Virus record (IMG/VR): IMGVR_UViG_3300027784_000027
Coordinates: 1 to 27,757 of that record
Origin: a virus
Length of the DNA: 27,757 bases
Strand: one strand, 5' to 3'
The translations under genes were made by a program, and so were the position numbers. The notes below the pieces were generated by a model. It searched no databases, was not told where the DNA came from, and saw only the letters and a list, made by a program, of their open reading frames with translations. Position 1 is the stretch's first letter. The number at the start of each line of letters is the position of its first letter. Shown here in pieces: positions 2,060 to 24,904 of the stretch.

Positions 2060-2839
2060 ATGAAAAAAAGAAAAAATAAAATTTACGGTAATTGTCGGGT
2101 TTTTTCACCAGAAGGAAAATTAATGTTTTTGTGTCTTGAAAAAAGAGCAAATTGGTATTTAGAAAGAAATCTTGCAAAAGTTATTTCAAGTAAACCATTA
2201 TCAATTAAATTAAAATTTCAACCTGCTGGTGAGGGTTTTGATGAAAATGATAATTATTATTTATCTGAAAAATCAAATATTTGTGTTGTTTGTGGTGAAA
2301 ATGATTTAGAAATTTTAACTAAACATCATATTGTTCCTATTGAATATAGAAAACATTTTCCTGAGGAAATTAAGAACAGATCATCACACGATATTGTTGT
2401 TATATGTAATAAAGATCATTATGATTATGAAAACAATTATGCACAAAAATTAAAAAAAGATTTAGAAGAAAAATACGATATATCTAAATCCAACATTGTA
2501 AAAAACAAAACAAAAACTGTAAAGACATATAACTTAGTTTTATTATTGCTTGATTCAAAAAAAGCAGTTCAAATACCAAAACAAAGAACAATTCAAATGA
2601 TGAAGGAAATCAAGGATGTTTTTGGGCATGATGATCTTTTTGAGATTGCAAAGGAAAAAATTTACAAAAAAATTGATAATGAAAAAAATAACATAGGAAA
2701 AGAAATTGTTGATAAAATAGAAGATATTGAATCATTTATAAAAATGTGGAGACAGCATTTTATTGATAGCACAAACCCTAAATATATGCCCAAGGGTTGG
2801 TTAGTAGATAATCCAATTAAAGTAATTAAAACTTATTAA
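2060..2839 (+). CDS. HNH endonuclease-like protein
   Basis: A 259-residue protein with a central zinc-bound HNH fold: CVVC at 75-78, KHHIVP at 88-93, a further histidine at 110 and the CNKDH pair (C116, H120). HNH proteins cut DNA as homing enzymes, restriction enzymes or packaging nicking enzymes. The N-terminal 55 residues (NCRVFSPEGK, RANWYLERNLAK) form a separate small domain that I have seen paired with phage HNH regions but cannot name. The C-terminal 120 residues are helical and lysine-rich. It starts directly after the NADAR stop. A free-standing homing endonuclease and a defence-related nuclease are both possible. Confidence 0.7.
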   Translation: MKKRKNKIYGNCRVFSPEGKLMFLCLEKRANWYLERNLAKVISSKPLSIKLKFQPAGEGFDENDNYYLSEKSNICVVCGENDLEILTKHHIVPIEYRKHFPEEIKNRSSHDIVVICNKDHYDYENNYAQKLKKDLEEKYDISKSNIVKNKTKTVKTYNLVLLLLDSKKAVQIPKQRTIQMMKEIKDVFGHDDLFEIAKEKIYKKIDNEKNNIGKEIVDKIEDIESFIKMWRQHFIDSTNPKYMPKGWLVDNPIKVIKTY

Positions 2840-2849
2840 TTTTAATGTA

Positions 2850-2857
2850 TATAAATA
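2850..2857 (+). promoter_or_regulatory. T4-type late promoter core TATAAATA
   Basis: An exact TATAAATA lies in the 33-base gap after the HNH gene, 15 bases before the next ATG. The same octamer precedes the neck, sheath and tube genes, which supports its being a phage late promoter rather than random A+T. Confidence 0.6.
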
Positions 2858-4681: not shown

Positions 4682-4713
4682 TTTGTTTTTTCAAAATTTT
4701 TTTTGTATATTTG
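4682..4713 (+). promoter_or_regulatory. host-type (Bacteroidota) promoter
   Basis: TTTG at 4682-4685 and TATATTTG at 4706-4713 are separated by 20 bases, matching the -33 TTTG / -7 TANNTTTG consensus of Bacteroidota. A T-rich spacer precedes the -7 box. The ATG at 4732 follows 18 bases later. The same arrangement with the same spacing occurs at 24169-24200. Confidence 0.75.
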
Positions 4714-4731
4714 TATATAAAAATTAAAACT

Positions 4732-5091
4732 ATGAAAAATCAAATTAAATTTCCAAAGAATTTTAAAATAGAAGGTATTTATCCACCAGGCATAACAACT
4801 ATGGGAAATAAATCTTATGCAGTTGCAGGTGGTAAATGGGTTGAGATTCCAGAAGGAACTGAAGTAAAAGATATAATGCCGCATTGGATAAACACAATGC
4901 CCAAATCTATTAAACAATCAGGCAACAAAAATGATTACAATAAAAAATTTGAAGCACCTTCATCTAAAGGTGATAAAAATTATACAGTACAAATTGATGA
5001 CAATGGAAACTATACATGTACATGCCCTGGATATGGTTTTCGTAGAAAATGTAGACATATTTTAGAGATAAAAAATAAAATAAAACTTTAG
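4732..5091 (+). CDS. SWIM-type zinc-finger protein
   Basis: A 119-residue protein ending in a SWIM zinc finger, CTCPGYGFRRKCRH (residues 96-109), i.e. CxCx8CxH with ligands C96, C98, C107 and H109. SWIM fingers bind DNA or mediate protein contacts in MuDR transposases, SNF2 helicases and recombination mediators. Here the finger stands alone behind an N-terminal segment (WVEIPEGTEVKDIMPHW) that I do not recognise. The ATG at 4732 was chosen over a TTG at 4711 because the TTG lies inside the promoter -7 box. The gene has its own host-type promoter, so early or middle expression ahead of the replication genes is likely. Confidence 0.75.
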   Translation: MKNQIKFPKNFKIEGIYPPGITTMGNKSYAVAGGKWVEIPEGTEVKDIMPHWINTMPKSIKQSGNKNDYNKKFEAPSSKGDKNYTVQIDDNGNYTCTCPGYGFRRKCRHILEIKNKIKL

Positions 5092-5137
5092 TATATTGAT
5101 GTATACAAAAAATAAATAAATATATAATCAACAAAAT

Positions 5138-6094
5138 ATGATAGATCAACTTTTCACAGGGAAATATAGACCCAAAAATTTAAATGAAATAATATTATCA
5201 GATAGAATAAAACAGGAAATTGGAGATGGTGAATTAAAACAAAATTATTTATTTTACGGTAGTTTTGGGATCGGAAAAACTAGCATTGCAAAAATTCTTG
5301 CAGATAATTATCCAACATTATATTTAAACATTTCAGATGAAAGTTCTGTTGATGTAATTAGAACAAAAATTACGGACTGGTGTTCAACGGTTTCGGTTCT
5401 TGATGATAAAAATACATTTAAAGTAGTTATACTTGATGAAATGGATGGTGCATCTGACCAATTTTACAAAGCACTACGGGGAACAATTGAAAAATTTACT
5501 GAAAATGGTTTAGCAAGATTTATCGGAACTTGTAATTTTATTAATAAAATACCTGAACCTGTACAAGATAGATTTAATTGCATACCATTCAACCCGGTTT
5601 CAAAAGAAGAAGAAAAAGAACTTCTTGTTAAATATATTAAAAGAACAATGGGTTTAATGAAGTCTTTAGATATTGAAATTGAAAAAGAAGCAGCAATTGA
5701 ATTTGTTAAGCGTAATTTTCCCAGCATGCGTGCTATTGTTAGTAAAATTCAATCATTTTATGATAGGGGAATAAAAAAAATAAACACAGAAGATATTAAA
5801 GTATTAAACTATTCTTTTAATGATATTTATAATTTAATATTAAAAAATACAGATCCTGAAAAAAATTACAAATTACTTGTTGGTCAATATTCATCAAAAG
5901 TTGATGATGTCCTTTCTTCTCTTGGAACAGAATTTCCTGAATATATTAGAGAAAACCATCCTGATAAAATAAACAAAATACCAATGATTTTAATTGAGGT
6001 TGCCAATTATCAAGCACAGCGTGTTCATGTAATAGATCCTTGTGTTTCAATGGTTGCTTGTGTAATGAAATTACAAATAATAATAAATCAATAA
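5138..6094 (+). CDS. 44: clamp loader large subunit (T4 gp44-like AAA+ ATPase)
   Basis: A 318-residue protein, practically the length of T4 gp44 (319). AAA+ motifs are in order: GKYRPKNLNEII (8-19), Walker A GSFGIGKTS (41-49), Walker B VVILDE (96-101), sensor 1 TCN (131-133) and the DRF arginine-finger/SRC element (144-146), with a helical collar domain at the C-terminus. With gp62 it loads the gp45 sliding clamp for the phage replisome and, in T4, for late transcription. A probable gp62 partner is encoded at 8062-8490. It is separated from the SWIM gene by 46 bases with no convincing promoter. Confidence 0.93.
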   Translation: MIDQLFTGKYRPKNLNEIILSDRIKQEIGDGELKQNYLFYGSFGIGKTSIAKILADNYPTLYLNISDESSVDVIRTKITDWCSTVSVLDDKNTFKVVILDEMDGASDQFYKALRGTIEKFTENGLARFIGTCNFINKIPEPVQDRFNCIPFNPVSKEEEKELLVKYIKRTMGLMKSLDIEIEKEAAIEFVKRNFPSMRAIVSKIQSFYDRGIKKINTEDIKVLNYSFNDIYNLILKNTDPEKNYKLLVGQYSSKVDDVLSSLGTEFPEYIRENHPDKINKIPMILIEVANYQAQRVHVIDPCVSMVACVMKLQIIINQ

Positions 6095-8568: not shown

Positions 8569-10554
8569 ATGCAGCCTATTAGTCTTAAACAATCTGGTCA
8601 ATTTGTAGTTGTTAATATTAAAGATCCATTTGAAAATGTAATAAAAATCAACAATTATTATGATCAAGTTGCTGGGTTTGGACAAATATTAAAACAATTT
8701 AGTTGGTCTTATGATAATAAAGTTTGGTCATTCTGGTCAATTTTAGATCAAGAAAATTTATTAAAACTATCCAAAGATAATTTACTTCCTAAAGATAAAT
8801 TTTACTTCCGTTTTAGATATACATTGACAACAATAGGCAGTATTCAAATATCAGATATCGGTATTGAAGTGGAGTATGATGTCGAAGATAAAAACAAAGG
8901 ATATATACCACACGGATATAGATTAGGTCATACTGGTGAAGTAGAATACGGTTCAATGAGAGGTGAAATTCTCAAAAAATGCAATTCACGTTTTAATCCA
9001 TATCTTGTAAACCCTGCTATTGATTTTTATAAAGATATTTGTTATGAAGTTCAAAATATGTTTGGCTTGGATGTTTCATATTTTAAAGTAAGTCCAAGAA
9101 AAGATTCTGGAGATGTCATATTTAGAGAATGGACATTATTTGATCACCAAGATCCTATTTGTACTAAAATAATGGTTCCTGATAACGAATTCCCAGATGA
9201 TAATATAAATTATATGTTACACGATATGGGATATGAAGAACCTTTTGAGATTCATATCGTTAAAGAAAATTTTGAAGAAATTTTTGGAGTAGGTGCAGTA
9301 CCCCAAAGTAGAGATGTTATTCATTTTAGTTTCATGCCAAGTAAATTATATGAAATAAGAAGTGTATCACCACATCGAGATTTTATGATGCAAATTGCAT
9401 ATTGGAAAGTTGATTTAATGAAATATCGTTCAAAATCTGATTCATATGCATCTGATGATGTTAATGAAATACTTGATGATATTACTAAAGATTCATATGA
9501 AGCATTTGGTGAAGAATTTAAAAAGGAAGCTGAAAAGATAACAAAACCCCAACAATATGACAGATTGGTTGGAAGCAATCTTAGAGATCCTATAAGAAAA
9601 TATGTTAATAAAGAATTGAAAATATATTCTCAAAAAATAGAAAATCATTCAACTGTAATTTCTGAAACACATTATGATTTGAGCACAATATTTAATTTAG
9701 ATAAAAATAACATTGGTGTTGAATATTCAATTTCATCAAATTTTAAAAAATCGGATAACTTTAGTTTTACATGTTGGTTTAAAGAAACAAATCCAAATTT
9801 TTTAATTCCTATAGATTTAGTAAAAATAATATCAGTTGAAAATAATATTGTGAAAATTCAATTACAAAAAAATAGACAATATAAAGAAGGTATAAAATTA
9901 CAAATTTACAGACAAGGAAAATTAAATTTTTTCGGAGAAATTGTAAATAATATAGATAATAAAACATATGAACTGGAAGTAGATAATAATGTATTAGAAC
10001 ACTTAGATTCAATATCATCAAATTGGAAAACTGCACCGGGTTGGTATACAAAAAGATGCTTCGAAGAAATTTTTATAGATGGAATGTCTGAGATTGGCTC
10101 ACCAGAGTTAACAAAAGGCTGGCGAATTTCATTAATCGCGGGACAATATATAAAATTAAATATAAATGAAGATGTTATATATTTTATATTAGAAAACAAT
10201 TTACAAGATCAATGGTATGGGTTAACTTTTAATTATGCAGCCACATTTGGTCAAATGAATTGTTCTGTTTGGGAAATGAATAAAAACATCTCGCAAAAAA
10301 CTACAGATTTGAATCTTGTATATTCTGATACAAAAAATGGAATAATATCAGAAGATAAAGAAACAGATAAAAATTATATAATACCAGGAACAAATTTATT
10401 ATTAACCAATATAAGGATTTTTAATGAAATAATAGAACAAGAGAAACAGTCGTTAATTTTAAATCAAAATATTGTACAAGATTCACAAAAGCTAATACTT
10501 GCCGATAATGCATTAAATTTATTAAAAATACCATATGTTGGAAACACAAAGTAA
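8569..10554 (+). CDS. 14: neck protein (T4 gp14-like) with extra N- and C-terminal domains
   Basis: A 661-residue protein. The middle (about 150-320) aligns by pattern with T4 gp14: GLDVSYFKVSPRKDSGDVIF, then a region ending FEIHIVKENFEEIFG, then PQSRDVIHFSFMPSKLYEIR, comparable to the T4 PKEGDLIYFP...FEI block, and a segment like the gp14 tail-side strand. T4 gp14 has 256 residues. The added N-terminus (1-130) is beta-rich and immunoglobulin-like; the added C-terminus (about 360-600) has NFSFTCWFKE and DQWYGLTFNYAATFGQ, resembling a LamG/concanavalin-type sandwich. Its position before terminase, sheath and tube fits the T4 order 14-15-16-17-18-19, although no gp15 gene follows. Neck function is fairly likely; the sugar-binding-like end is less certain. 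Confidence 0.62.
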   Translation: MQPISLKQSGQFVVVNIKDPFENVIKINNYYDQVAGFGQILKQFSWSYDNKVWSFWSILDQENLLKLSKDNLLPKDKFYFRFRYTLTTIGSIQISDIGIEVEYDVEDKNKGYIPHGYRLGHTGEVEYGSMRGEILKKCNSRFNPYLVNPAIDFYKDICYEVQNMFGLDVSYFKVSPRKDSGDVIFREWTLFDHQDPICTKIMVPDNEFPDDNINYMLHDMGYEEPFEIHIVKENFEEIFGVGAVPQSRDVIHFSFMPSKLYEIRSVSPHRDFMMQIAYWKVDLMKYRSKSDSYASDDVNEILDDITKDSYEAFGEEFKKEAEKITKPQQYDRLVGSNLRDPIRKYVNKELKIYSQKIENHSTVISETHYDLSTIFNLDKNNIGVEYSISSNFKKSDNFSFTCWFKETNPNFLIPIDLVKIISVENNIVKIQLQKNRQYKEGIKLQIYRQGKLNFFGEIVNNIDNKTYELEVDNNVLEHLDSISSNWKTAPGWYTKRCFEEIFIDGMSEIGSPELTKGWRISLIAGQYIKLNINEDVIYFILENNLQDQWYGLTFNYAATFGQMNCSVWEMNKNISQKTTDLNLVYSDTKNGIISEDKETDKNYIIPGTNLLLTNIRIFNEIIEQEKQSLILNQNIVQDSQKLILADNALNLLKIPYVGNTK

Positions 10555-10557
10555 GAA

Positions 10558-10563
10558 AAGGAG
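10558..10563 (+). promoter_or_regulatory. Shine-Dalgarno site AAGGAG for the small terminase gene
   Basis: AAGGAG lies six bases before the ATG at 10570. It is the only strong Shine-Dalgarno sequence I noticed at a start in this window; the other genes have A-rich leaders. Confidence 0.6.
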
Positions 10564-10569
10564 AAATTT

Positions 10570-11235
10570 ATGAATAACAAAAAAGTAAACCAAAAAGAAA
10601 GAGAAAAAAAAATTGATGAACGTAAAGAACTTGAAGAATTGATAAAAGAATCAGGTGAAAGTTTAGATAATTTAACAAAGGAGGCAATGGATCTTGCACC
10701 AAAATCTCAACCTATAGTGTTTAATCATGAGGAAATTGAGGAAAATTCTATACAAGAAGCAACTGATATTGTAGAATCAAGTGCAAAATTTTATTTAGAA
10801 GAAGATGTTATTAAAGAAGAACATTATATTCAACAAAAAATAAATGCTGATGTTATTACAATGACCGATATGATAAAACAATCTAAAGTTGCGGAATACG
10901 CTATATTTAAAATGATTCAGCAAATAGATGAAGGCAATATGCATCCAAGACAATTTGAAGTTCTTTCGGGTTTTCAACGCTCCAAATTAGAATTGACAAA
11001 AACAATTGCACAATATGTAGTGATGATGGAAAATAATTTTAAAAATATTAAAGAAGATTACAAAAATAAAAAAAATGAAAATACACTTGATAGTGATTAT
11101 GATGAAGAAGAAGATAATGAAGAAGAAAGAGTTGAAAGAGGTACCAGAAGCTTTATGCAAAGAGTAAGAGGTGCAGTTGACGATGTAAATGCAGAAAAGA
11201 AAAATGCAGAAAAAATAAACAAAGAAAATGAGTAA
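10570..11235 (+). CDS. 16: probable terminase small subunit (gp16-like)
   Basis: A 221-residue, highly charged helical protein immediately upstream of and overlapping (8 bases) the large terminase gene. The N-terminus is a lysine/glutamate coiled coil, the centre (residues about 125-165, FEVLSGFQRSKLELTKTIAQ and onwards) looks like the oligomerising helix pair of T4-type gp16, and the C-terminus has an acidic run (DSDYDEEEDNEEE) followed by a basic tail. TerS rings recognise phage DNA and stimulate the TerL ATPase. The assignment rests on position, size and helical layout rather than a recognised motif. T4 gp16 is shorter (164). Confidence 0.62.
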   Translation: MNNKKVNQKEREKKIDERKELEELIKESGESLDNLTKEAMDLAPKSQPIVFNHEEIEENSIQEATDIVESSAKFYLEEDVIKEEHYIQQKINADVITMTDMIKQSKVAEYAIFKMIQQIDEGNMHPRQFEVLSGFQRSKLELTKTIAQYVVMMENNFKNIKEDYKNKKNENTLDSDYDEEEDNEEERVERGTRSFMQRVRGAVDDVNAEKKNAEKINKENE

Positions 11236-12985: not shown

Positions 12986-13086
12986 TTAATGATTTGTAAA
13001 ATGAATATATATAAAAAAACAAAAAAGTAAAAATTTTTATTCTTTAAGAAATATATAAATAAAATATAAAATAAAATAATTTTAAG
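12986..13086 (+). promoter_or_regulatory. leader of the sheath gene with late promoter core at 13054-13061
   Basis: An exact TATAAATA occupies 13054-13061 within ATATATAAATAAAAT, the same extended context as at 8546 and 16654, 25 bases before the sheath ATG. A second A+T box, GAATATATATAAAA, lies near 13003 but is not a match. No stem-loop terminator is seen after the terminase stop. Confidence 0.65.
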
Positions 13087-16000
13087 ATGGCAAAATTAAC
13101 ATTAGATTTAAATAAATTTAAAGCAGCTGGTATTTATACTGTAGAGTTTGATGCATCAGAATCTATAACAATAACTACACAAACAACTAGATTGGTTGTG
13201 GGTTTTTCAAGAAAAGGTCCCTTTAATGCACCTGTGTTTTTAAGAGATGTTAAATCGGCAAGAAAAATATTTGGAGAAATTGATCCTATTCTTGAAAAGA
13301 AAGGTTCGTTTTTTCACAGATCAATTGAAACTTGTCTTCAAACAGGTCCAGTTTTTGCATTAAATTTATTATCTTTAAATAATACACCAGATGGTGATAA
13401 AGTTGATTTTAAATCATATTCACTAAGTATTGCAGAAGATAATAGTGAAACACAAAAAGATTTATTATCATCCTTTTATAATAAAGAAAGATTTTGGTTT
13501 GCAGATTCCGATTATTTTCAAGCAATTGTAAATAACAATCCTTTAACCGCAAACAAATTAATGAGTTTTACAAATTTGGGACAAAGACCAATTTCTGTTA
13601 TAACACGTAAAGCTAGAAACATATCAGGTTTTGAAATAACAGCTAGAGATTTTTATGGCTCAGGAAATGTACCTGATTATATAAGAGAATTTGATTTTAT
13701 TTCAGATTATTTTATTGATGTTATTATAATGGAAGGTGATTGGACTAATTATGATACACTTAGTGCAGATCCAGATTATTCAAAATTTTTTGATAAAAAC
13801 GGTATAAAAACCGAAATGATTGAAAATTTTATTGCAGATGAAAATACTACATTAATTGCAAATATGACAGGATGTATAATTCCTGAGTTTACAGATAAAA
13901 CTGGAACAAACCAATACATTGAAACTATTGTAAACAATTCATTAGCAACAACCGGAGTATTTATGACAATTAACAAAGAAGCTTTTGATGATTATGATAT
14001 TTCAGAACACAAACTTGATTTAGTTGGTCATAGTTTAGTTAAATCTAAAAAAGATACAATGAACTTTTTGTCATATGTTTCTCCATTGAGTGACGAATTG
14101 TTTTTTGGTTCATATCCTAATTTTGAGAATGAAATAGAAATTAAAGAATATCATGTTAATGATTTTAATGGTTATCCATTTTATATTAAATCATTACCGT
14201 TTATAGATGATTCAAGTCCATTTATGAACACTCTTGTTATACCAAAACCAAAGCCAACATTTCCAAATCAACACTTTTCATTAAATGATTATAATGAATT
14301 GATGATGAATTTAACAGAAAATAGCTTGGTTAAATCTTATGGTGATGAGTCAAAGAAAAATGATTTTGTAAAAGTAAATTCAGTTAATAATACAGGAACA
14401 TCATTGGAAATTGTTTTATCAAATCCAGACAAAAATACAACAAGTGCAGGTGTTTATAATAATGCAACAGTAACAAATGCGATTCAGGGAGATAATGAGA
14501 TAACAATAGAATTTACTGAGGTATCTCCAAATATTGAACCAAATGATTTGATTTATATTAAAGGTTTAAATAAGTATTATGTAGTTGAAACCACTGAGGC
14601 TTTAAGTACACCTTCTAATTCTTATAAAATTAAACTTTATGAAAAATTAGAAGATATTTCAGGATATGAGAGTTATTTATTCTATGATAAATGGCTTGAT
14701 GAAAATATGCAAATTGATGAAAATGAAATTATAAATAAATCAGTAGCAGTTTGTGTTATTAGTCAACATAGTGATTATATAGCAAATATACTTGATACTG
14801 AAAATGCTGAGATTAAAAAATTTCAATATATAGAAAAATCATCTGTTATATTTGATGAAGAAGAAGAAGATATAAATTATATTGATGTATATCCTGGTAA
14901 TAAATTATTTGAACATATACAAAATAAATTAATTATAAATGGTGATTATATATCAACAAATGAGAATTTCTCAATACTTAATTATTTATCATTTAATAAA
15001 AAAGTTGGATATTACGGATTATCAGCAAAAAGAATTACACAATGGGCTGATATGAATTTATCAACACCACCAAGTAATTATGTTACAATTGGATCTGATG
15101 CACCATCATATACAAAAAGTGGTTTTGAAACAACATGGTCAAGTGATGATACTGAATGGATGGAAATTGTAAAAGAACAAGATTTACCCGATTACGCAGG
15201 TTCAGGATATATTGCAATTAATTCTTCTGTTGAAAAAATTGAACAAAATATTCCATTTATTAATAATACAATGAATGCTACACATACAAGTTTTAGGGTA
15301 GGTGCTGATTATGGTCATTTAATTGATGTAGGACATTTCTTAGTAGTAGAAGATACTGAAGATCCTGGGTTAACAAAAGTTACACAAAAACTTAGAAAAA
15401 CAAATACTGAAACTGGTTATGTAGAATATGAAATTGTTGTAAATGAACCTGTTAGAACATTAGAAAAAATCGTCAATGGGGAAAAAGTTAAATATGTTAC
15501 AAGATTTTATCCTATACCAAAAATTGCAAAACATTTACAATTTGCTAGTTTAGGGGGGTTTAAATTAACATCATATCATATGCCAGGAACACCTGAGCAA
15601 TTATGGAAAATTCTTAATGTAATAGAAACAACAAATCTTGGAGATACATTAGTGGATAAAGAAATAATACACTTTAGATATTTAATTGATACATTTAGTG
15701 GAGGTCTTGAACCTATGTGTGGACCTAAGGTTATTTTATCTCGTCTTGCTAAGAAAAGATATACTTGTATGGCTATTATAAATGCACCATCAATTGCACA
15801 ATTCATTCAATCAACAGATCCTAGGTTTACAGATGAACCGAGACCAGATCTTGGTGAACCTAAACCTGTTTTAAGAACAGAATATATTGCAAGTGGAGGT
15901 AATTTATCATTAGGACCATCATATAGATTTAGTTTACCGGATGATGAAAATGGTGCAAGATTTTCAGGTATATTTAGCCCGTTCTTAAAAATAAGAGAAA

Positions 16001-16602
16001 ATAATAAAAATAAACATATACCACCCGCGGCGGATGTTTCTAATAATTTTATTAGAAAATTTACATCAGGACAACCTTATACAATTGTTGCAGGTCCTCG
16101 TCGTGGTGTTTTATCAAACCCAAGACTTGTAGGTCTTGAATATGAATATTTACTTGCGGATAGAGAATATCTTGAGCCCTTTGGAATAAATCCAATAATA
16201 ACAACACGTAGAACTGGTCCTATGATTTATGGTAACCAATCTGCATATCAAAAAACATTAACTGCATTTAACAATTTACATGTTCGTGATTTATTAATTA
16301 CTGTTACTGAGGCAATTGAAGATGTTTTATCTAATTATGTATTTGAATATAACGATGCTAGAACTCGACTTGAAATAAGAACAATTGTTGAAGGATATTT
16401 ACAAGGAGTACACAATGCAGGAGGTATATTCGACTTCTTAGTAATAATGGATGATAGCAATAATACACCTGAGATAATAGATCAAAATATTGGTATTATT
16501 GATATAGGAATAGAACCTGCAAGAGGAATGCAAAAAGTAATTAATAGAATTACTGTATTAAAAACTGGTGCAATTGCAGCAGGTGGTTTTACGATAGCTT
16601 AA
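13087..16602 (+). CDS. 18: tail sheath protein (gp18-like), very large
   Basis: An 1171-residue contractile sheath protein; T4 gp18 has 659. The N-terminus has the family handshake region: ITITTQTTRLVVGFSRKGPF (27-46) followed by DVKSARKIFGE. The C-terminus carries the conserved polymerisation core: LEPFGINPIITTRRTGPMIY, HVRDLLITVTEAIEDVL, FEYNDARTRLE and IIDIGIEPARGMQKVINRI. The extra roughly 500 residues lie between these ends as long beta-rich insertions (about 330-880), probably domains displayed on the tail surface. The protein contracts to drive the tube through the envelope. It is the first gene after a late promoter core. Confidence 0.93.
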   Translation: MAKLTLDLNKFKAAGIYTVEFDASESITITTQTTRLVVGFSRKGPFNAPVFLRDVKSARKIFGEIDPILEKKGSFFHRSIETCLQTGPVFALNLLSLNNTPDGDKVDFKSYSLSIAEDNSETQKDLLSSFYNKERFWFADSDYFQAIVNNNPLTANKLMSFTNLGQRPISVITRKARNISGFEITARDFYGSGNVPDYIREFDFISDYFIDVIIMEGDWTNYDTLSADPDYSKFFDKNGIKTEMIENFIADENTTLIANMTGCIIPEFTDKTGTNQYIETIVNNSLATTGVFMTINKEAFDDYDISEHKLDLVGHSLVKSKKDTMNFLSYVSPLSDELFFGSYPNFENEIEIKEYHVNDFNGYPFYIKSLPFIDDSSPFMNTLVIPKPKPTFPNQHFSLNDYNELMMNLTENSLVKSYGDESKKNDFVKVNSVNNTGTSLEIVLSNPDKNTTSAGVYNNATVTNAIQGDNEITIEFTEVSPNIEPNDLIYIKGLNKYYVVETTEALSTPSNSYKIKLYEKLEDISGYESYLFYDKWLDENMQIDENEIINKSVAVCVISQHSDYIANILDTENAEIKKFQYIEKSSVIFDEEEEDINYIDVYPGNKLFEHIQNKLIINGDYISTNENFSILNYLSFNKKVGYYGLSAKRITQWADMNLSTPPSNYVTIGSDAPSYTKSGFETTWSSDDTEWMEIVKEQDLPDYAGSGYIAINSSVEKIEQNIPFINNTMNATHTSFRVGADYGHLIDVGHFLVVEDTEDPGLTKVTQKLRKTNTETGYVEYEIVVNEPVRTLEKIVNGEKVKYVTRFYPIPKIAKHLQFASLGGFKLTSYHMPGTPEQLWKILNVIETTNLGDTLVDKEIIHFRYLIDTFSGGLEPMCGPKVILSRLAKKRYTCMAIINAPSIAQFIQSTDPRFTDEPRPDLGEPKPVLRTEYIASGGNLSLGPSYRFSLPDDENGARFSGIFSPFLKIRENNKNKHIPPAADVSNNFIRKFTSGQPYTIVAGPRRGVLSNPRLVGLEYEYLLADREYLEPFGINPIITTRRTGPMIYGNQSAYQKTLTAFNNLHVRDLLITVTEAIEDVLSNYVFEYNDARTRLEIRTIVEGYLQGVHNAGGIFDFLVIMDDSNNTPEIIDQNIGIIDIGIEPARGMQKVINRITVLKTGAIAAGGFTIA

Positions 16603-16687
16603 ACATTGATTTAAATAATTTTAAGAAAGTACAAAAAACTATTGAAGATAAAATATATAAATAAAATAATAAAAAAACAACACAATT
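16603..16687 (+). promoter_or_regulatory. leader of the tube gene with late promoter core at 16656-16663
   Basis: An exact TATAAATA at 16656-16663 in the extended context TATATAAATAAAATAA lies 24 bases before the tube ATG. It would give the tube gene its own transcript, useful because the tube is needed in many copies. Confidence 0.65.
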
Positions 16688-17251
16688 ATGGCAGGATTAC
16701 CACATTATAAATCAAGTATACCCGCTCAAAAACATTGGGATCCAGTATTTTTAGCATATTTTGATATTCAAATAACACCTCCCCCGGGAATTGCCGACTG
16801 GCCGTTAGTAATGAATAATATACTAAGTATCGGTGAAATTTCATTAAATAAGTTTCCTGAAAGTATAGCACAACAAACATATAAAAATGCAAAACGTAGA
16901 TATGTAGGTGGGGCAGTTCCAGACCAAACACAAGATTTAACTTTAAGTTTTGAAGTTAACTTAAATGATAGTGATGAAATGTATGTATATAAAGCATTAA
17001 GAAGATGGTGTGATTTAGCATACAATCCACTTACAGGTAAATTTGGTATGAAGCGAGATTATCACGGAGGGCCTATAATCATTACACAATTTAATGCTAA
17101 TGGTGATATATTTAGACAAATTACATATCAAGTATGTTTCCCAATGTCTCAAGTACCTGGTCCAGATGGAGTTGATTGGACATCAGAAGAGGTTTATAGA
17201 ATTGAAGATTGGACACTTGGAGTTGATGATTGGGATGAAGTTTGGTTATAA
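16688..17251 (+). CDS. 19: tail tube protein (gp19-like)
   Basis: A 187-residue protein directly after the sheath gene. The pattern is that of T4 gp19-type tubes: an N-terminal region leading to PVFLAYFDIQITPP, a middle block LTLSFEVNLNDSDEMYVYKA, then LRRWCDLAYNPLTGKFGMKR, GPIIITQFNANGDIFRQITY and an acidic end (IEDWTLGVDDWDEVWL). Hexamers of this beta-barrel protein stack into the DNA-delivery channel inside the sheath. T4 gp19 has 163 residues. A clear terminator follows the gene. Confidence 0.9.
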   Translation: MAGLPHYKSSIPAQKHWDPVFLAYFDIQITPPPGIADWPLVMNNILSIGEISLNKFPESIAQQTYKNAKRRYVGGAVPDQTQDLTLSFEVNLNDSDEMYVYKALRRWCDLAYNPLTGKFGMKRDYHGGPIIITQFNANGDIFRQITYQVCFPMSQVPGPDGVDWTSEEVYRIEDWTLGVDDWDEVWL

Positions 17252-22780: not shown

Positions 22781-23311
22781 ATGAAGAAAAAATTAGTATT
22801 TATAGGAAAAAGTTGTAGTGGAAAAACAACACTTGCCAATGAATTATGTAAATTTGGATTAAAAACACAATTAAGTACAACGTCTCGTCCAAAAAGAAAA
22901 TTAGAAAAAAATTATGTAGATTATGAATTTATTTCAGAAAATGAATTTAATAATCGGAAGAAAAACGGTAAGTTTATTGAAACTGATGTTTTTAATGGTT
23001 GGAATTATGGTCTTTCATATGAAGAATTTGAAAGAAGTGATATATTAATTTTAACACCAAGAGGTTTTAAAAAAATTATAGAAAAAGTTTCTTGTGATAA
23101 TTTTCTTGTTATTTATTTAGAAACCTCAATTTCTTTAAGAAAACAGCGAATTGAAGAAAGATGTGATAATTATGATAGTTTACATAGAAGATGGGTTGCG
23201 GATGATATTGATTTTGAAAATTGGGAACAATGGGGATATCCCTGGGATATGAAAATTTCATTACAAAATAATACAATAATGGAAATAATAGAAATAATTA
23301 CAAATAAATAA
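22781..23311 (+). CDS. guanylate kinase-like P-loop enzyme
   Basis: A 176-residue kinase-like protein with P-loop GKSCSGKT (9-16) and the guanylate kinase GMP-binding element STTSRPKR (32-39) followed by a YEFISENEF block (49-57), as in GMP kinases (xYxFxxxExF). A later arginine pair (LRKQRIEER) could be the lid. Guanylate kinase makes (d)GDP from (d)GMP. Next to a dCMP deaminase, a dNTP-supply role is likely. It is slightly shorter than cellular guanylate kinases (about 205), with an unusual tryptophan-rich end (FENWEQWGYPWDM). Confidence 0.75.
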   Translation: MKKKLVFIGKSCSGKTTLANELCKFGLKTQLSTTSRPKRKLEKNYVDYEFISENEFNNRKKNGKFIETDVFNGWNYGLSYEEFERSDILILTPRGFKKIIEKVSCDNFLVIYLETSISLRKQRIEERCDNYDSLHRRWVADDIDFENWEQWGYPWDMKISLQNNTIMEIIEIITNK

Positions 23312-23358
23312 AAATAATTAGCTAAAAATTTTGTTTTTTAATAAAATTTGGTTAAATT

Positions 23359-23366
23359 TATAAATA
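23359..23366 (+). promoter_or_regulatory. T4-type late promoter core TATAAATA
   Basis: An exact TATAAATA in the 67-base gap after the kinase gene, 12 bases before the ATG at 23379. It would drive the following unknown gene and perhaps the deaminase gene. Confidence 0.6.
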
Positions 23367-24168: not shown

Positions 24169-24200
24169 TTTGTTATTGTCAAAAATTTTTTGTATATTTG
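24169..24200 (+). promoter_or_regulatory. host-type (Bacteroidota) promoter of the sigma factor gene
   Basis: TTTG at 24169-24172 and TATATTTG at 24193-24200 are 20 bases apart, the same boxes and spacing as at 4682-4713, and the bases just before the -7 box are nearly the same (CAAAA, T-run, G). The sigma gene ATG lies 44 bases downstream. Confidence 0.75.
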
Positions 24201-24244
24201 TTTATATTAAACTAAAAAATCTAAAATCTAAAATATCTAAAATA

Positions 24245-24904
24245 ATGGGAAGAAAAGAAAAGTCAATACAAGAATTTGCAAACGAATGGTTTGAAACAAA
24301 ATCTGAAGTGAAATTTAAAAAATTAATTGATAGATTATTACCGGGTTTTCATAAACATATAATAGATATTGAAAAATGCCCAATAAAACGCGATGAAATA
24401 ATAAATGATTCTTTTTCAAAAATTTGGGATAAAATACACCAATACGATAGTGAAAAGGGTGCATTTTCAACATGGGCTCATAAGATAGTATATCATGAGG
24501 CTTTATTATCAAAAAGATATTCAAATAAAAACTCATCATTAGATGAAATGATGGAATTTGGTGTAACTAATTATAAAAATTCATCGGATTTTTCAATACA
24601 ACCTGATGAATATGGTGATGAAAAAATATCAAAAGAAATAGTTGATGAATTATATACTTATACAATTGAAACAATGAAAAACTTTCCAGAAAACGGTAAA
24701 TTTAAAAAATGGAAACATGCTTTACTTTTAAAAGAACTGGAGAAAAAAAGATTTAATGAAATTGCAAAAATCATGAACGAAAATGAAAATACAGTAAAAG
24801 GTTGGGTTTGTAAAGCTCGAAGGTATTTAAAAGAAATAGTTAAAGAAAAACATAATGTTTTAGTAGATGATTATAAAAAATTAAAATGTGTAAATGAAAA
24901 TTAA
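24245..24904 (+). CDS. sigma-70 family (ECF-like) RNA polymerase sigma factor
   Basis: A 219-residue protein with a region 2 (residues about 47-92: DSFSKIWDKIHQYDSEKGAF then STWAHKIVYHEALLSKRY) and a region 4 helix-turn-helix (about 168-197: KRFNEIAKIMNENENTVKGW then VCKARRYLKEIV). This two-domain plan is that of ECF sigma factors and of the phage late sigma factor (T4 gp55 has 185 residues). The ATG at 24245 was chosen over an upstream TTG at 24170, which lies inside the promoter. Given TATAAATA boxes before structural genes, a late sigma role is the likely inference. It overlaps the next gene by 11 bases. Confidence 0.88.
   Translation: MGRKEKSIQEFANEWFETKSEVKFKKLIDRLLPGFHKHIIDIEKCPIKRDEIINDSFSKIWDKIHQYDSEKGAFSTWAHKIVYHEALLSKRYSNKNSSLDEMMEFGVTNYKNSSDFSIQPDEYGDEKISKEIVDELYTYTIETMKNFPENGKFKKWKHALLLKELEKKRFNEIAKIMNENENTVKGWVCKARRYLKEIVKEKHNVLVDDYKKLKCVNEN

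What the first reader, a model, noticed from the sequence alone, without database searches (positions are those of the whole stretch)
24169..24904. Host-type promoter drives a phage sigma factor while structural genes carry T4-type TATAAATA boxes
Two exact TTTG-N20-TATATTTG promoters occur, one in front of the sigma factor. Five exact TATAAATA octamers lie in the short gaps before 2873, 8569, 13087, 16688 and 23379, three of them neck, sheath and tube genes. This fits a T4-like early-to-late switch adapted to a host with a very different -7 consensus, using an ECF-like sigma in place of gp55.
Basis: partly seen in the sequence, partly recalled or inferred. Interest (0 to 1): 0.62.

Follow-up and report, generated by a model that had tools for sequence, protein, structure and literature searches.

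The report
Three-tier promoter switch, huge phages
A fragment of a very large virus of (probably) Bacteroidota bacteria carries three kinds of gene switches, and comparison with its relatives suggests that the host's own machinery starts infection, a borrowed stress-type sigma factor then turns on DNA-copying genes, and a phage-T4-type factor turns on particle-building genes last.

Summary
The observed motifs are real. Both host-type promoters are exact (4682, 24169), and five TATAAATA octamers sit in gaps before genes. Comparison with relatives changes the reading. TATAAATA lumps together two or three promoter classes. (1) Early: host-type TTTG-N20-TATATTTG, before the sigma gene and one other. 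In six related records the sigma gene always carries the clade's early promoter. In seven relatives, 53 of 57 intergenic GAATATAA sites have AAC at gap 14-15, against 3 of 57 coding sites at gap 14; middle genes are replication and nucleotide genes. (3) Late: a single T4-type box without a -35 (AATATATAAATA in the window, GATATATA or GGAATAAATAGTAA in relatives), before 8569, sheath, tube and 17390. Relatives carry a T4 gp55 homologue as well as the ECF-type sigma, so 'ECF in place of gp55' is not supported. Best explanation: host sigma, then ECF-type sigma (middle), then gp55 (late). No transcript or protein data exist, and the sigma-to-promoter assignments are inferred. A 430-kb relative that has the sigma showed no AAAC class.

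The parts
24245..24904 (+). ECF-type sigma factor gene (219 aa; region 2 at residues 27-87, region 4 at 159-194)
   Evidence: Pfam Sigma70_r2 6e-8 and Sigma70_r4_2 3.6e-5; NCBIfam ECF families; profile hits SigW 1.8e-22, SigH, RpoE; AlphaFold two-domain model closest to sigma-E; syntenic orthologues
24169..24200 (+). early, host-type promoter of the sigma gene: TTTG-N20-TATATTTG
   Evidence: early-class promoter conserved before main-clade sigma orthologues
4682..4713 (+). early, host-type promoter: TTTG-N20-TATATTTG, before gene 4732-5091 (SWIM zinc finger)
23330..23360 (+). possible host-type promoter TTTG-N19-TAAATTTA, overlapping the fifth TATAAATA (23359-23366), before 23379; could instead be a late-box variant AATTTATAAATAAAA
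   Evidence: sequence; in G006 the orthologue has GATATATA
2828..2854 (+). middle promoter: AAAACTT-N12-GTATATAA, before 2873; overlaps the first TATAAATA (2850-2857)
5082..5108 (+). middle promoter: AAAACTT-N12-GTATACAA, before the clamp loader gene 5138-6094
   Evidence: the clamp loader of G001, G002 and G008 has AAC-TAAGTATACT..GAATATAA
22728..22754 (+). middle promoter: AAAACTT-N12-GTATATAT, before guanylate kinase 22781-23311
   Evidence: orthologues in G001, G002, G003, G008, G010 and G011 preceded by GATATATA
13050..13064 (+). late box AATATATAAATAAAA before tail sheath 13087-16602
   Evidence: ATATATA core before nearly all sheath orthologues
16652..16666 (+). late box AATATATAAATAAAA before tail tube 16688-17251

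Best explanation
The window is a fragment of a huge T4-related phage, probably of a Bacteroidota host, with a three-step transcription programme. Step 1: host RNA polymerase with the host housekeeping sigma reads TTTG-N20-TATATTTG promoters, among them that of the phage's own ECF-type sigma. Step 2: the ECF-type sigma, with its region 4 on the AAAC -35 and its region 2 on the -10 (GTATAyA in the window, GAATATAA in the main relatives), redirects host core polymerase to middle genes such as the clamp loader and guanylate kinase. Step 3: a gp55-type small sigma, encoded outside this fragment, reads single T4-type boxes before structural genes. Shown by sequence: the three motif classes, their conservation, the two sigma families and the gene classes in one relative. 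Inferred: which sigma reads which class, the timing, the host, and a gp55 gene in this particular phage.
For: Sigma is ECF-type with regions 2 and 4. gp55 family in 16 of 18 related records and in 4 more, with T4 gp55 as the best PDB match. GATATATA in seven relatives: 99 intergenic-sense, 24 coding-sense, 6 antisense sites, no -35. GAATATAA: AAC at gap 14 or 15 in 53 of 57 intergenic-sense sites, against 3 of 57 coding and 3 of 28 antisense sites at gap 14. The AAAC pair also came top in an unbiased pair search in G002, G013 and LR756500. Middle genes in G002: clamp loader, DnaB helicase, topoisomerase II, dUTPase, SSB; late: sheath, tape measure and others. Main-clade sigma genes have the early promoter, 6 of 6. 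The -10 reading needs a new sigma region 2, since GAATATAA is not the host TAnnTTTG (PMC7366714).
Against: No transcript, protein or binding data. The window itself has no gp55 gene, although it is only 27.8 kb. A 430-kb relative (G017) has both sigmas and strong early and late classes but no detectable AAAC class. T4 co-factors gp33 and gp45 were not found with Pfam models in 11 records. Three middle and four late sites in the window are few. The middle and late -10 boxes resemble each other (TATA-rich), so one sigma could read both.
Confidence: 0.67

Rival explanations
1. One reading: a two-step early-to-late switch in which the ECF-type sigma itself reads the TATAAATA boxes of structural genes in place of gp55.
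For: The window holds an ECF-type sigma and no gp55, and structural genes have the boxes.
Against: gp55 homologues are present throughout the relatives; late boxes have no -35 although the sigma has region 4; a separate AAAC class with an ECF-type -35 exists.
Confidence: 0.08
2. The AAAC element is the site of a phage activator (MotA-like), and gp55 or a modified host sigma reads the TATA-rich middle -10; the ECF-type sigma serves another, unseen set of promoters or the host.
For: T4 middle promoters need the early proteins MotA and AsiA with host polymerase (PMC6024815 abstract). Middle and late -10 boxes are similar. G017 has the sigma without a visible AAAC class.
Against: The AAAC-to-box distance is nearly fixed at 14-15, the AAC core fits ECF -35 elements (own knowledge: GGAACTT of sigma-E), and the sigma gene is an early gene, as a middle-class switch should be.
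Confidence: 0.17
3. The motifs reflect only A+T-rich leaders and translation signals, not promoters.
For: The window gaps are 81% A+T and TATAAATA is not over-represented in the window as a whole.
Against: Strand-specific, gap-specific conservation across genomes of 32-41% G+C, and fixed spacing between two elements.
Confidence: 0.04

Closest known systems
T4 late transcription (gp55, gp33, gp45; TATAAATA)
   Same: gp55-family protein in relatives; single -10-like box before structural genes with no -35; core NATA(A/T)ATA is within one or two bases of TATAAATA
   Different: box is GATATATA or GGAATAAATAGTAA in relatives; gp33 and gp45 not found with Pfam models; gp55 gene lies downstream of a late-promoter ORF
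SPO1 sigma cascade (host sigma, gp28 middle, gp34 late; PMC9429907)
   Same: successive phage sigma factors for middle and late genes
   Different: here the inferred middle sigma is ECF-type and the late one gp55-type, in a T4-related phage
T4 middle transcription (MotA and AsiA with host sigma)
   Same: middle genes are replication and nucleotide genes
   Different: the -10 is not the host type, so a new sigma rather than an activator is implied
ECF (group IV) sigma factors such as RpoE and SigW
   Same: regions 2 and 4 only, -35 with an AAC core
   Different: phage-encoded, early-class promoter, no anti-sigma factor looked for; -10 is a long TATA-rich box
Jumbo/huge phages of Bacteroidota (Lak phages, moraphages PMC12619734, Jug phages PMC12363816)
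   Same: large genomes related to T4, predicted Bacteroidota hosts; a sigma gene is noted in moraphages
   Different: the papers held and checked describe no promoter classes or sigma-promoter links

Membership tests
ECF (group IV) sigma factor | regions 2 and 4, no region 3 | tested here: met
   Pfam r2 and r4 hits (r4 just under its cut-off), two-domain AlphaFold model, best PDB relatives ECF
ECF (group IV) sigma factor | reads a -35 with AAC and a -10 | tested here: inconclusive
   AAAC-N14 promoters exist in the window, main clade, G013 and LR756500 but binding was not tested and G017 lacks them
T4-type late transcription | gp55-family sigma | tested here: inconclusive
   met in relatives, absent from the 27.8-kb window
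T4-type late transcription | single box near TATAAATA and no -35 | tested here: met
   99 sites in relatives without -35; exact TATAAATA before 8569, sheath and tube in the window
T4-type late transcription | gp33 co-activator and gp45 sliding clamp | tested here: not met
   no match to PF16805 or PF02916 in 11 records; divergent versions would be missed, and some records are fragments
Bacteroidota sigma-A promoter | TTTG at -33 and TAnnTTTG at -7 (PMC7366714) | tested here: met
   two exact sites
T4 middle promoter (MotA box) | host-type -10 plus MotA box | tested here: not met
   middle -10 GAATATAA / GTATAyA is not the host TAnnTTTG; MotA itself was not searched for

The most novel reading that the evidence does not exclude
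In a whole group of T4-related huge phages, the MotA/AsiA-type middle switch has been replaced by an acquired ECF-type sigma under an early host promoter. Its -35 (AAAC) stays fixed while its -10 drifts between lineages (GAATATAA, GTATAyA, GnrTAAT, GCATATAA), which would be a natural series for reading how sigma region 2 and its promoter change together.
Probability: 0.52. Interest if true: 0.72.

Novelty: new variant of a known kind. Interest (0 to 1): 0.6.

Why it matters
It would give an explicit promoter map for uncultivated huge Bacteroidota phages, letting genes be sorted into early, middle and late from sequence alone. It would also show a T4-type late system combined with an SPO1-style sigma relay, and it offers a testable set of sigma-promoter pairs in Bacteroidota, where promoter tools are few. 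No paper in the held library described these classes, though subscription papers are mostly missing.

Tried and rejected
One late class defined by TATAAATA: rejected, because it is only weakly or not intergenic-enriched in relatives and mixes classes in the window. A GAAC -35 for late promoters, suspected from a few sites: rejected on 99 sites. A promoter in the gap before gp55: the gap is an open -1 frame with an A9 run. AAC-N14/15-GTATA inside that frame, 196-283 bases before gp55 in six records, may be only peptide conservation, so it is left open. A close relative of the sigma by single-sequence search: none. An AAAC class in G017 was sought and not found.

Full report
What the window is. 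G000 is a complete 27,757-base IMG/VR record, G+C 27%, nearly all genes on the + strand. It holds an RNA ligase/fibre protein, a tRNA-His guanylyltransferase, clamp loader, exonuclease, large terminase, contractile tail sheath, tube, tape measure, guanylate kinase, dCMP deaminase and a sigma factor. Its relatives are huge T4-like phages; the nearest are two contigs of one metagenome, G013 (217.7 kb, sigma 49%, terminase 65%) and G004 (146 kb, sheath 57%, tube 69%). G004 has gp55 but no ECF sigma and G013 the reverse, so they may be parts of one genome (inference).

The octamer is not over-represented in the whole window but is in the gaps. Longer patterns are much stronger: four AATATATAmAwAAAA against 0.03 by chance and three AAAACTT-N12-GTATA against 0.001. 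These longer patterns were defined after looking at the gaps, so their chance values are best read together with the independent evidence from relatives.

Late class. In 80 sheath loci the element kept upstream of the sheath is (G/A)ATATATA, not TATAAATA. In seven long relatives GATATATA occurs 99 times intergenic-sense, 24 coding-sense and 6 antisense, although gaps are only 5-13% of the DNA. No -35 shows in the 99 sites. In G013 the box is GGAATAAATAGTAA, whose AATAAATA is one base from T4 TATAAATA; GATATATA is two. The window AATATATAAATA fits both registers. PMC2988020 reports highly similar late consensus sequences in several T4 relatives and a variant in phage Aeh1.

Middle class. GAATATAA in the seven relatives has AAC at gap 14 (34 sites) or 15 (19 sites) among 57 intergenic-sense sites; coding controls have 3 of 57 and antisense 3 of 28 at gap 14. 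A pair search without this hypothesis put AAAC (or AACT) with a TATA-type box at the top in G002, G013 and LR756500. The -10 differs by lineage: GAATATAA (main clade), GnrTAAT (G013), GCATATAA (LR756500), GTATAyA (window). Middle genes in G002 include clamp loader, DnaB helicase, topoisomerase II, dUTPase, SSB and a third sigma; late ones include sheath, tape measure, the 8569 orthologue and a homing endonuclease, with most of the others unnamed; early ones are mostly small unknown ORFs plus DNA ligase and an exonuclease. These annotations cover one record only.

Early class and the sigma gene. Main-clade early promoters have a TTGTTAATAACTTT box with the -7 (TAnnTTTR) exactly 40 bases (30 cases) or 38 bases (7) downstream. 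All six main-clade sigma genes examined have it. In remote clades the sigma follows the dCMP deaminase gene closely and shows no promoter of its own. The -7 fits the Bacteroidota consensus in PMC7366714. The Bacteroidota host is inferred from this and from predicted hosts of similar phages (PMC12619734); it was not tested otherwise.

Which sigma reads what. The window sigma is ECF-type by profile, PDB relatives and model (the model has low confidence in the linker and a pTM of 0.42, so the arrangement of the two domains is not certain). Relatives also carry a gp55-family protein. A two-domain sigma fits a two-part promoter and a region-2-only sigma fits a one-part box; the sigma gene itself is in the early class. 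This is an argument from architecture, not a test. Against it: G017 has both sigmas with no AAAC class found, and gp33 and gp45 were not found.

Conclusion. Confidence 0.67 for the three-step model as a whole; higher (about 0.85) that the late boxes are a T4-type gp55 class, about 0.7 that the ECF-type sigma reads the AAAC class.

Noticed in passing
G001 28456-30018 (L107), also G002 61418-62992, G006 9182-10768, G008 57100-58644: A run of nine A at the end of a 514-528 aa ORF (late promoter in G002 and G008; probably capsid by position) with the -1 frame open for 212-214 further codons in all four records: a likely programmed -1 frameshift, with the gp55 gene next.
   Followed up: partly
upstream regions of G001, G002, G006, G008, G011, G014: A TTGTTAATAACTTT box (TTGTTAGTAACTTTT in G013/G004) at a fixed 40 or 38 bases before the host-type -7; its binder is unknown, and its complement resembles a DnaA box.
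   Followed up: partly
G017 (430 kb relative; loci L392-L411), early regions: G017 has about 50 TATATTTG-type upstream sites, many followed by GTAATTAA and some preceded by TTTAACG..ATCGTT boxes, unlike the main clade.
   Followed up: no
G002 192179-192796 (L135): A third sigma-like gene (PHROG 1740) behind a middle promoter; LR756500 has five sigma region 2 matches.
   Followed up: no
window 2060-2839: HNH-endonuclease-like ORF with a weak match to IscB (E 0.001, far under its cut-off).
   Followed up: no
window 16652 region: The tube promoter also has AAC at gap 13-14 before its box and might be read by both classes.
   Followed up: no
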